NCBI RefSeq assembly: GCF_964355755.1
Contig: NC_092671.1
Location: 33,747,304-33,811,303, forward strand
Length of the DNA stretch: 64,000 nucleotides
From: Antedon mediterranea
Lineage: Eukaryota; Echinodermata; Crinoidea; Comatulida; Antedonidae
Reading direction: 5' to 3'
Of this stretch, positions 525 through 64,000 are shown piece by piece. The translations under genes were made by a program, and so were the position numbers. The notes below the pieces were generated by a model. That model was not told the DNA's origin and made no database searches. It saw nothing but the letters and a program-made list of their open reading frames with translations. Each line of letters starts with the position of its first letter. Positions within the stretch are counted from its first letter, which is position 1.

Positions 525-2926
525 CATCAGCGTTTAATCCACTTTTTTTAACAGGAGGTCCTGAAGCAATAAAAAGAATATTAACTTTAAAGTGTAAAGC
601 TTTTTAAATTAGAACAATCTATAATATATTTTGCTTATTTTAGAGAAACATTTTTATTGTCAAAGACTTCGTTTTGGATACTATATAAACCTTCCAAGTA
701 AACGGACAGCCTAAACATTCAACATCGATACGACTTCGCGCTTAAGTGAACGTTAAACAAATTCATGTTTATAAGTCGAAATGGTACAAACATTTTATCT
801 AGGGGAAAATAAACAATGATTTTATCTTTCGTCAAACGAATAGAAGAACAAGACTTTTTTTGTATAACAATGACCTTTAAACGACAGACCTAATCATTAG
901 ACGACGCGGCATTCCAATTATAGACATAGTTTGCCATATTGGATAATTTGAAACAGTAGGATTTCACATTGCAAAACAATATATATATATATATATATAT
1001 ATATATATATATATATATATATATATATATATATATATATATATATATATATATATTTCTGTCTAATATATTAAAATTATAAGCACACAAATTGTAGTGT
1101 TAATAATGTCAATGAATAACCAAACAATCATAGGCTTAGGCCTAGCTATGCTAAAGCGCCTAGGTTAGAAAAGCTGCGATAACATTAAAGCTAAATTAAT
1201 TATTTATTTTGTCTAAATTTATACGTATCTCTCCAAAAATTCCGTCGCGATACAGTATTTTCATTGTTTAAAAAACGGCGGTGCTGTTGGATTTCACGTT
1301 CAACTTTTTTTTTCATACACAGAAGAAACGGAACAATACTATTTAACGATCTTTAAATAGTTCGTAATTTCATGACATGTAACCCACAATCGTCCAATCA
1401 AATGACCGGAATTTATTTAGGTGTTATATGTTTTACAATATATTAAAAATAAGCAGAAATTGAGAAATTATACACTTTTTAAAACATACATTACATTAAT
1501 AAAACAATAACTTACTTGCCATGGCCAAGTGGTGGACTTGAAACACAAACAATATAACAAATACAACTACCAGCGATTTCATTCTGTGAAATAAATATTT
1601 GTAGTGTTTAACATTTTCACAGAAAAAGGCTATCCTTGTCATAGCTATACAAGCACATTGGAAGTAGATCTGATTTTTCCTGGCCATGAAAAGGAAACAC
1701 TGGCCAACAAGCTCAGTCATTGCTGGGATTGGCTTCCTATAAAAATTAATTTGTTTACAGAATAAATAATAAATGAAACTCTTTGCCACTTTTATCAGCA
1801 ACTATATGTCAGACAAACATGGTTTGACGTAAAAGCCATGTTTGTTTAATTATACAGGTATTAGCCGTTATTCACGTTCCCACACACATTATGAAGCCAT
1901 ATCCTTAAACACTAAAGCCTGCAATTCAGCCCCATCTTTATTCATAAAAATTTAGCCATAACGTGTGGTTAACATGCTTGCCTTCCACGGTTCAATCTTG
2001 ACCTAGTACCAGGGTTGGAATTCACGACCGTTTTAATCAACTCAATACACAATACTTGATGAAGGAGTTCTGGACTGGATGATGACGAGAACAACTGAGA
2101 ATGGAAACACAGGAATAAGATGGAAATTTAGAGAACTCCGCAGATTAAAATCAGAATGTATAGAATTGGATAGCACATGTGCTAAGAATGTAAGATGACA
2201 GCGATTGCAAAAAAGCATTGACATGGACACCTGATGGGCGAAAACAAAGTTGGACGTCTGAGAACTACGTGGAAATCATGGAGCGAGGCCAAGTGAGTTC
2301 CCAGAAACAGAAGAAGCTGGACATAGACCACTGCACTCTTCTGGGCCACAGGGCCCTAAGAGAGTAGATGAGATAGATTAGATTATCCATCATGAAATTC
2401 TCGTTGTTTTTAAATTGCAATAATTAAAAGAAAAATCGTATATGATTATCAATAAAATGTGCTATTTCATAAATTAAAAACTAAATTAAAAGATATTAAC
2501 AGACAAGTCATTAACATATTAATTTCACAGAAACATTATTATTAAAGTTCAATCATAAGCAAACTAAAGCTCTTTGCTTAGCGTTTAAAAGAAAGTATTA
2601 CACTACAGGTTTCTTTAAAAAAAATAAATCCACGCAAAAAAAACCGGAAATACTTTCTTAAAATCCCTTTAAAAATTGAAAAAATGTGTAAAACAAACAT
2701 TATACAATCCATACTTATACTACGTCAAGCATAATGTTAACGAAGGACATCATAGGTTGTCATTTCCTCTTATTGGCTCCACACACTATATAATAATATC
2801 CACAATATCAAATATATTGTATATCATTCTTTATTTTGTCAGTTCAGCAAAACATGAACATAGAACGAAATTTAATTAATAAGACAGAAGTACCTAAAAA
2901 AGAAATACTTACATTTTACTTGACAT
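525..2926 (-). CDS. Candidate secreted microexon peptide gene A (5' part; continues off the window start)
   Basis: Three minus-strand exons join in frame. Exon 1 ends at 2913 with donor AAAAT|GTAAGT and carries an ATG at 2926-2924 (M-S-S-K). Exon 2 is 1516-1583, with acceptor TTTCACAG|A and donor GGCAA|GTAAGT; it encodes a signal peptide starting MKSLVVVFVILFVF and ending HLAMA. Exon 3 is 525-560 (36 nt, phase 1 in and 1 out), with acceptor TTGCTTCAG and donor GATG|GTAAGT, encoding PPVKKSGLNAD. Exon 1 supplies two bases and exon 2 one base to make an in-frame Ile codon before the second Met; exon 2 supplies one base that makes Arg with exon 3. An A-x-A signal-peptidase site (AMA) falls just before R-P-P. 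Splice sites and frame are seen; expression and function are inferred. The 3' exons lie outside the window. No known family recognised. Confidence 0.55.
979..1056. repeat. (AT)n microsatellite in intron of gene A
   Basis: About 39 AT dinucleotides in the intron between exons 2 and 3 of candidate gene A. Same repeat class as the arrays near 10.2, 11.3, 13.0 and 13.9 kb. Confidence 0.95.
1375..1436. repeat. Fragment of a dispersed MITE (same as 30.07-30.12 and 30.72-30.78 kb)
   Basis: Shares the strings CCCACAATCGTCCAATCAAA and TTTATTTAGGTGTTATAT with the right end of the hairpin element near 30.72-30.78 kb, and in reverse with the centre of the foldback near 30.07-30.12 kb. Only an end fragment is present. 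Confidence 0.6.
2205..2385 (+). pseudogene. Decayed 3' end of a LINE reverse transcriptase ORF
   Basis: Across two frames the translation contains WTPDGRK, then GRLRTTWKSWSEAK, then a W...ALFWATGP-like end. This resembles the C-terminal tail common to many animal LINE ORF2 proteins (a W-x-P-x-G-K-R string, then G-R-P-x-T-T-W, then a short end). Frame changes and stops break it. Family assignment is from memory of the motif order, so it is tentative. Confidence 0.35.
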
Positions 2927-2993
2927 GATAATATTACAACGTCAATACGATTGAGTTAAAGTGTCAGCTTCAAATAAACTAAATCGTCAAATC

Positions 2994-62967: not shown

Positions 62968-64000
62968 CTGTTTTATAACTTTTTATATTTGCATATTTTT
63001 CCGTGGAAACACAGTTACCGTAACATTGTTTCTTGTTTATTTATAGCGAGTTGACAAATGACATGCGACAGCCCATCGTCAAATCCCTTAAGTTTTGTTA
63101 CGTCGTTGTGTTGCGTCTCTAGTGAGAACCAAATATTATGCAAAATAACTAAACATTTTGTACTAAAAACAGCTACATGCTTTATTTATTTGCAATTGTC
63201 AGTATTATATATATATAATAATTGCAATTGCATATATATGTATTCGAATATCAGCAATTAATAGAGTGTTTATACTTTTAAATGTATACGGTAGTTTAAG
63301 TGTTTAATTATGTTTATATTGTTTATAAAATGAGGATAATATACTTACTAAAATGTATACTGTGGTTATCTCTCGAAGTTTTTCCATGCGTTGATAATAT
63401 TCGATTATGTAAATATTTCTACGGATAATTAACCGTACTGTTTACTATACTTTTTTCTCCTCGATATATTTTCTGATTTATTTTGTTTCACGTTTTTATG
63501 CATTAGGATTACCAATAGTAAATTAATAATTTAATCACTGTCTATCAGATAGATGGCAATCTCCTGACACTGCTATTTTGTGAATTAGTCCAGCTGGGTA
63601 ATACCCCACTAATCTCGAATGATAAACTGCGTTCGGTCGGGAAAAGTGTGTACTCTGGACCTAAATTATATTCCTTATCCGAGAAGACTTGTTCCACCAC
63701 CAGAACCCATGACGCATGACGATATTCGGCCATTTACCAGAGAATTCTTCTCTGTTTACCACTTTTATCACCTACCTTTACACCTGTCATTTTATATAAT
63801 CTTATAATCAATTTGAGCCAAAGTACTTTCTTGTGCATAGTGAAATGACCACAACGCTCTGGTCCATATTTACTGCGATACCTTAGATGCAGTGGAAGAC
63901 ACAGTTAGTATAATTCGTATCAAACATTTGACTCCACCGGTCTCTTGCACAAACCACTATATTATTTCCTTCCTACCCCAGGGTAAAGACGCTTTAATTC
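62968..64000. other. Window end, no supported gene
   Basis: Two overlapping opposite frames at 63545-63807, slightly less AT-rich than their surroundings, not recognised on either strand. A minus-strand ATG with donor TTTTA|GTAAGT at about 63358-63400 is a weak exon candidate. Confidence 0.3.

What the first reader, a model, noticed from the sequence alone, without database searches (positions are those of the whole stretch)
525..63000. Recurring 27-36 nt microexon on the minus strand at both ends of the window
Segments at 525-560, 8351-8379, 9290-9319, 60770-60796 and 61185-61214, all minus strand, share ACCTCC...GGATTAAACGCTG, each between a good acceptor (TTCAG or near) and a good donor (GTAAGT or GTACGT). 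Four of five are 3n long and open in phase 1. They encode short related peptides (PPVKKSGLNAD, PPLGGLNAG, LPSGLNAAE, PLKKINAE, SSIMEINGG). Such symmetric tiny exons behind a signal exon recall the micro-exon genes known from flatworms; I know of no such family described for this sequence type. Could be a secreted variable-peptide system.
Basis: partly seen in the sequence, partly recalled or inferred. Interest (0 to 1): 0.88.

Follow-up and report, generated by a model that had tools for sequence, protein, structure and literature searches.

The report
Feather-star micro-exon secreted peptide genes
The tiny repeated segments are copies of micro-exons from a cluster of small secreted-protein genes in the feather star Antedon mediterranea, where splicing joins short pieces and separate pieces carry the cut site of a processing protease, which suggests the proteins are shuffled and chopped into sets of short peptides.

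Summary
Segment 525-560 is a 36-nt phase-1 exon: it is in the database protein P0002 ("uncharacterized protein isoform X2", Antedon mediterranea) and is skipped in P0003 ("isoform X5"). All six proteins retrieved (P0001-P0006, four genes) are rebuilt to the last residue from GT-AG exons. They use 27 distinct internal micro-exons of 27-57 nt, all 27 divisible by 3 and phase 1 on both sides. At least 14 signal-exon sequences lie on C2 at 33.51-33.87 Mb. Of the five segments, one is an annotated exon, 9290-9319 looks intact, 8351-8379 has lost its acceptor, and 60770/61185 resemble annotated exons but lie in what looks like a broken copy. Best reading: a tandem family of secreted multi-peptide precursors built from symmetric micro-exon cassettes. 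Cleavage and function are inferred. The architecture recalls schistosome MEGs and aphid bicycle genes; no sequence kinship was found. No paper in my searches' listings describes it in an echinoderm.

The parts
2913..2926 (-). First coding exon, 14 nt, ATGTCAAGTAAAAT|gtaagt (MSSKI, last codon split)
   Evidence: Reproduces residues 1-5 of P0002/P0003. Same type at 33874553, 33860142, 33715901.
1516..1583 (-). Signal-peptide exon, 68 nt, acag|AATGAAATCG...GGCAA|gtaagt (MKSLVVVFVILFVFQVHHLAMA), leaves in phase 1
   Evidence: Residues 6-27 of P0002/P0003; paralogous signal exons.
525..560 (-). 36-nt phase-1 micro-exon, PPVKKSGLNAD
   Evidence: Present in P0002, absent from P0003; the two otherwise differ only at the last acceptor and the split codons.
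9619..9645 (-). 27-nt phase-1 micro-exon of the RxRR type, HNRVRREE, ttttag|...|gtgagt
   Evidence: relaxed scan; resembles annotated RxRR exons. Not in a retrieved protein.
9290..9319 (-). 30-nt phase-1 micro-exon, LPSGLNAAE, intact sites
   Evidence: same type as 33871405 PPSGLNAAQ. Not in a retrieved protein.
8351..8379 (-). Decayed GLNA-type exon (29 nt, acceptor TTCAAG)
61185..61214 (-). 30-nt phase-1 exon copy SSIMEINGG, paralogue of the annotated exon SSIIEINAE (33732589)
60770..60796 (-). 27-nt phase-1 exon copy PLKKINAE, paralogue of the annotated exon PPKKINTE (33732216)
62189..62211 (+). Inverted, truncated RxRR-exon fragment (acceptor plus the first 14 exon bases), sign of rearrangement about 1 kb from 61185
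35024..35100 (-). Candidate further signal exon NMKIIIAVLLVVAIVLIYVYADTDH, phase 2 in, phase 1 out, donor GTACGT
   Evidence: lies in a segment with an 88-93% copy at C2:33.853-33.859 Mb. Membership unproven.

Best explanation
The segments belong to a tandem family of secreted precursor genes in the crinoid Antedon mediterranea, on C2 at about 33.51-33.87 Mb. Each complete gene seen has a small start exon, one signal-peptide exon, a run of symmetric phase-1 micro-exons (27-57 nt), then a tiny terminal exon. Two kinds of cassette are joined: peptide cassettes (GLNA/INAE, Gly-rich IFQ..., DHDISSKQE, TPSWDEMITN, TRYIWNDIN) and cassettes that encode an RxRR site. SHOWN: exon structure, phase, tandem array, database isoforms that differ by whole cassettes. 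INFERRED: because the internal exons are symmetric, skipping or duplicating one does not break the frame, so splicing (and, over evolution, exon duplication) can change the set of segments in the product. INFERRED: a furin-like convertase cuts after RxRR in the secretory pathway and releases peptides of about 9-32 residues; including or skipping an RxRR cassette would decide whether neighbours are released separately. The target is unknown; signalling, defence and chemical-cue roles are open.
For: P0001-P0006, all named 'uncharacterized protein [Antedon mediterranea]', are reproduced to the last residue from GT-AG exons (6 of 6). 27 of 27 distinct internal exons are 3n and phase 1-1; 22 of 27 are at most 36 nt. 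P0002 vs P0003: exon 525-560 in or out plus a CAG/TAG tandem acceptor at 33729781/33729778. P0006 has one RxRR cassette more than P0005. P0001 does not use an intact exon TPSWDEMINN at 33726185. Homology scan of 324 kb: 71 candidates at score 18 or more against 13 in the reversed sequence, whose best score is 31. Conservation centres on the exons and their splice sites (RxRR type n=11, GLNA type n=8). RxRR sites in P0001-P0006: 4, 2, 2, 3, 2, 3. Genome search with one signal exon: 8 of 8 hits in this cluster.
Against: No RNA reads or peptides were seen; database isoforms may in part be predicted. Furin cleavage rests on the consensus only. No glycine stands before RxRR and cysteines are few. 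Several copies are decayed or rearranged (8351, 62189). The exons at 9290, 9619, 60770, 61185 and the gene at 33.87 Mb were in the queries and returned no protein of their own. DHDISSKQE exons use the unusual donor GTGATT. No relative outside Antedon mediterranea came back, in a search that needs shared 5-residue words. The RxRR exon could not be searched genome-wide.
Confidence: 0.8

Rival explanations
1. The same micro-exon genes, but the product is an uncut secreted repetitive protein (mucus, matrix or adhesive); RxRR serves binding or is incidental.
For: Repeated Gly- or Pro-rich pieces in P0001 and P0004. No cleavage data.
Against: R-X-R-R recurs in unlike cassettes (RIRR, RVRR, RARR, RYRR, RNRR, RFRR) on both strands while neighbouring residues vary; two copies deviate (KIRR, KRYGR).
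Confidence: 0.25
2. The segments are the 3' ends of signal-peptide exons, since the phase-1 frame stays open and hydrophobic upstream (MKMYSLCFLLIFVTESSIMEINGGS, MNINFKMFLCFCLIVSGPLKKINAES).
For:: open hydrophobic frames with ATG at 61185 and 60770; an in-frame ATG also at 8351.
Against: 525 and 9290 have no ATG in that frame after the last stop; the hydrophobic run can be the translated polypyrimidine tract; database proteins use the paralogues SSIIEINAE and PPKKINTE as internal exons and have a separate signal exon.
Confidence: 0.04
3. Transposon ends or dispersed repeats with chance splice sites.
For: The window holds retroelement ORFs and tandem repeats.
Against: 9 of 10 genome hits in one cluster and on one strand; similarity centres on the exon and its sites; one segment and paralogues of two others are in annotated proteins.
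Confidence: 0.02
4. A partly dying cluster: many copies, including four of the five segments, are remnants and only a few genes are active.
For: Lost acceptor at 8351, inverted fragment at 62189, retroelement ORFs between 9.6 and 60.7 kb, no database protein for these exons.
Against: Four genes have complete database products; at least 14 signal-exon sequences remain. It can be true together with the best explanation.
Confidence: 0.3

Closest known systems
Schistosome micro-exon genes (MEGs)
   Same: Small secreted proteins; signal peptide in front; central coding part of mostly symmetric micro-exons (under 36 bp; 26 of 33, 79%, symmetric in MEGs 26-32 by PMC4671649, passages seen) that allow frame-safe alternative splicing.
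   Different: Here all 27 internal exons seen are phase 1 and 3n, exons reach 57 nt, RxRR cassettes recur, genes sit in one tandem cluster, flanking coding exons are small (14-50 nt and 11-29 nt), host is an echinoderm. No sequence relation found.
Aphid bicycle genes
   Same: Putative secreted effectors, rapidly evolving, many unusually small internal exons of one phase (PMC9168663, passages seen).
   Different: Bicycle internal exons are almost all phase 2, about 17 exons on average, CYC motifs; here phase 1, 5-7 micro-exons per protein, 0-2 cysteines, RxRR sites.
Echinoderm multi-copy neuropeptide precursors (for instance crinoid PCNP1-20)
   Same: Signal peptide followed by short segments between basic cleavage sites, partly repeated.
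   Different: The peptides quoted in section 36 of PMC9793003 do not match; no glycine before RxRR; the cut site sits on its own micro-exon. Figures and supplements of that paper were not seen.
Sea urchin Sp185/333 (SpTransformer) genes (recalled; nothing read)
   Same: Recalled as a tandem echinoderm family of mosaic secreted proteins.
   Different: Recalled as two-exon genes with the mosaic inside one exon, not separate micro-exons.

Membership tests
Schistosome-type micro-exon genes | Central coding region mostly of micro-exons (<36 bp) | tested here: met
   22 of 27 distinct internal exons are at most 36 nt (three of them exactly 36); range 27-57 nt.
Schistosome-type micro-exon genes | Micro-exons mostly symmetric | tested here: met
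   27 of 27.
Schistosome-type micro-exon genes | Signal peptide mostly or wholly in the 5' exon | tested here: not met
   In all four genes the hydrophobic leader lies in the second coding exon.
Schistosome-type micro-exon genes | Two long flanking exons | tested here: inconclusive
   Coding parts are 14-50 nt and 11-29 nt; UTR lengths unknown.
Schistosome-type micro-exon genes | Sequence homology to MEG proteins | tested here: inconclusive
   Three protein searches returned Antedon proteins only, but they need shared 5-residue words.
Aphid bicycle genes | Internal exons in phase 2 | tested here: not met
   27 of 27 internal exons phase 1.
Aphid bicycle genes | CYC motif | tested here: not met
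   0-2 cysteines per protein.
Multi-peptide (neuropeptide-like) precursor | Signal peptide plus repeated basic cleavage sites | tested here: met
   2-4 RxRR sites per protein behind a hydrophobic leader; no signal-peptide program was run.
Multi-peptide (neuropeptide-like) precursor | Amidation glycine before the cleavage site (common, not universal) | tested here: not met
   The residue before RxRR is D or S at every site.
Multi-peptide (neuropeptide-like) precursor | Cleavage demonstrated | not testable with these tools
   No peptidome data.

The most novel reading that the evidence does not exclude
A combinatorial peptide system: separate micro-exons carry the payload peptides and the protease cut sites, so splicing edits not only which peptides are in a precursor but also where it is cut, and tandem duplication of cassettes and genes keeps inventing new payloads.
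Probability: 0.45. Interest if true: 0.87.

Novelty: new variant of a known kind. Interest (0 to 1): 0.78.

Why it matters
The micro-exon secreted genes that I found in print are from parasitic flukes and plant-feeding aphids. A free-living echinoderm with a like architecture would say that it can arise outside such exploiters. The separate RxRR cassette gives a concrete, testable way to make several short peptides from one gene by splicing. Such genes are easy to overlook, since each coding piece is only 9-19 residues long.

Tried and rejected
Signal-exon reading of the five segments: rejected for 525 by P0002, for 9290, 60770 and 61185 by homology to internal exons. Transposon-end reading: rejected. 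Conserved terminal exon by peptide similarity of 1,732 minus-strand candidates: swamped by repeats; it showed GKINMNKTSNRTNNNDQE, which I used as terminal exon in the query and which was wrong (P0001 ends SGIGEEP). Pfam on the six proteins: nothing above a cut-off; best E 0.039, and a Conotoxin line at E 0.15 (13.4 bits, cut-off 25.1) is taken as chance. PDB sequence search of P0004: best E 0.65. Too strict splice scores listed 1 exon, so scores were relaxed. In one search my first-exon lengths for P0001, P0005 and P0006 were 3 nt too long and these three did not match; corrected. A genome-wide search for the RxRR exon did not complete, so its confinement to the cluster is not shown. Bryozoan origin considered on chromosome number, dropped.

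Full report
WHERE. The window is C2:33747304-33811303 of a 354-Mb genome of 18 contigs. Lengths seen: C1 41.4, C3 39.0, C8 28.6, C11 22.3 Mb, then C12 0.57 Mb and smaller, so eleven large contigs if they are numbered by size. Protein hits name Antedon mediterranea on a contig of 40,927,303 bases; C2 here is 40,922,303, a difference of 5,000 that I did not explain, but the exons match exactly. Taxonomy: Crinoidea, Comatulida. I tiled C2:33637304-33961303 and took 4 kb at 33.597-33.601 Mb.

IS IT REAL. The five segments exist. The core alone is weak evidence. The core with donor is nearly confined to this cluster: 9 of 10 genome hits, those 9 all minus. A scan for symmetric phase-1 mini-exons with good sites gave 25 minus and 7 plus at score 8 or more; two of the plus ones are exons of the plus-strand genes. 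A library-based scan gave 71 candidates (score 18 or more) against 13 in the reversed sequence, with the control's best at 31. The library was made from exons already seen, so the real count is favoured; the match to database proteins is the independent test.

EXON-CENTRED CONSERVATION. For 11 RxRR exons chosen by me from different copies, pairwise identity is 0.74 in the 10 nt before the acceptor, 0.51-0.73 in the exon, 0.66 in the 10 nt after the donor and 0.26-0.42 in the bins beyond. For 8 GLNA-type exons the figures are 0.85, 0.50-0.76, 0.88 and 0.29-0.50. Three GLNA-type exons were left out, one for lack of flank in its piece, two as near copies of others.

DATABASE PROTEINS. Joining predicted plus-strand exons and searching gave P0001 at E 7.6e-44. 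A composite of exons of the window gene and of the gene at 33.87 Mb gave P0002 (E 8.9e-56) and P0003 (E 3.5e-37); a third composite gave P0004 (E 1.7e-20), P0005 (1.5e-3) and P0006 (4.6e-3). All six are reproduced to the last residue by GT-AG exons (P0002, P0003, P0004; P0001, P0005, P0006 after a corrected first exon). They are four genes. For P0005 and P0006 the copy used is not unique, because DHDISSKQE occurs in four exons and ERGSRIRRDE in two. P0002 reads MSSKI-MKSLVVVFVILFVFQVHHLAMA-RPPVKKSGLNAD-VHDRVRRGEV-EPSFMEINAE-KPAAKRYGLNAE-VHDRVRRGEE-ESSIIEINAE-RPPKKINTE-GLPPKGVN (junction residues drawn on the 3' side). Its first three exons are in the window (2913-2926, 1516-1583, 525-560); the rest lie to the left, to 33729756. 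P0003 lacks 525-560 and uses the other half of a CAGTAG tandem acceptor. P0006 has one RxRR cassette more than P0005. The label 'isoform X2/X3/X5' stands in the source's name; that such labels usually rest on RNA-seq is general knowledge of NCBI's pipeline, not seen here. Against a wider claim: the exons at 9290, 9619, 60770 and 61185 and those of the gene at 33.87 Mb were in the queries and gave no protein of their own.

FAMILY. Signal exons: 8 of 8 hits of MQTLVVVFLVLFLFQAEFGQCQDNDG in the genome lie at C2:33.514-33.825 Mb, minus (the one at 33652753 follows a CAA-rich stretch, and may not be a normal exon). Others are MKSLVVVF (33748886), MQSLVVIF (33873971), SFQLLVVIF (33714538) and SFQLSVVIF (33671057) on minus, and GSLVLAF (33675861) and GLLVLF (33720489) on plus: 14 in all. 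Locus L047 shows the same plan: signal, KKRYGRNE, KKRFRRDE, PTRSINSE. RxRR variants are RIRR, RVRR, RARR, RYRR, RNRR and RFRR; one copy has KIRR and one KRYGR.

THE FIVE SEGMENTS. 525-560: annotated exon. 9290-9319: intact, behind an RxRR exon at 9619-9645, as 33871405 stands behind 33871546 in the gene at 33.87 Mb. 8351-8379: acceptor lost. 60770-60796 and 61185-61214: same order as the annotated SSIIEINAE and PPKKINTE exons and similar spacing (373 nt there, 418 nt here), but an inverted RxRR fragment lies about 1 kb upstream at 62189, which looks for exact words only, found no terminal GLPPKGVN exon in the window. I take this copy as probably broken.

MECHANISM. Shown: structure, phases, isoforms, array. 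Inferred: frame-safe skipping as a means of varying the product; convertase cleavage after RxRR; release of peptides such as GEVEPSFMEINAEKPAAKRYGLNAEVHD(RVRR) or DEDHDISSKQEERGS(RIRR). Net charges of the fragments behind the first site run from -5 to +3, with no shared cationic antimicrobial pattern. Function is open.

LITERATURE. MEG features come from passages of PMC4671649, bicycle features from passages of PMC9168663. Of PMC9793003 I saw the outline and sections 5, 7 and 36; its figures and supplements were not seen, so identity with one of PCNP1-20 is unlikely by the peptides quoted but not excluded. Searches, seen as listings only: (15 of 44 papers; 25 of 4,061; 19 of 19; 20 of 44), 78 microexon + crinoid (0), 82 micro-exon + echinoderm (0), 85 microexon + echinoderm + secreted (2), 97 (0), 98 (4 of 4). 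None of the titles listed describes such a family in an echinoderm. Most subscription papers are outside that library.

NOVELTY. A known kind of gene architecture, in a new phylum as far as these searches show, with protease-site cassettes as the new twist. The gene products exist as uncharacterised proteins, so the genes are annotated but, by these searches, not described as a family.

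Noticed in passing
L002 about 370-10000 and L021-L023 (C2:33.674-33.692 and 33.717-33.727 Mb, plus strand): Two similar plus-strand members of the family lie among the minus-strand genes, with TPSWDEMITN, TRYIWNDIN and Pro-rich cassettes.
   Followed up: yes
L005-L006, exons at C2:33822270, 33820349, 33817598, 33813288: DHDISSKQE exons are followed by the unusual donor GTGATT in all four copies, and the cassette is in P0005 and P0006.
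   Followed up: partly
window 45166-47652 and 48852-51338: Two 828-aa gag-like ORFs in tandem that look identical (zinc knuckle, PNMA-like, protease in the first), a recent retroelement duplication; pol and integrase ORFs follow.
   Followed up: no
window 11586-12851: Two facing ORFs share their C-terminal part, which recalls a Penelope-type GIY-YIG endonuclease (recalled; no Pfam hit for the first).
   Followed up: no
L024 (C2:33697041-33699373) and L003: A 69-nt tandem repeat whose frame reads FGIIEPNNKPTRGMAVRLRCKPA lies next to family exons; one unit is at window 60682.
   Followed up: no
window 32751-38363: About 5 kb in pieces has an 88-93% copy at C2:33.853-33.859 Mb, including the stretch with the candidate signal exon at 35024-35100.
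   Followed up: partly
window 21345-22214 (+): A 289-aa ORF with a Cys/His-rich C-terminal part and no Pfam match.
   Followed up: no
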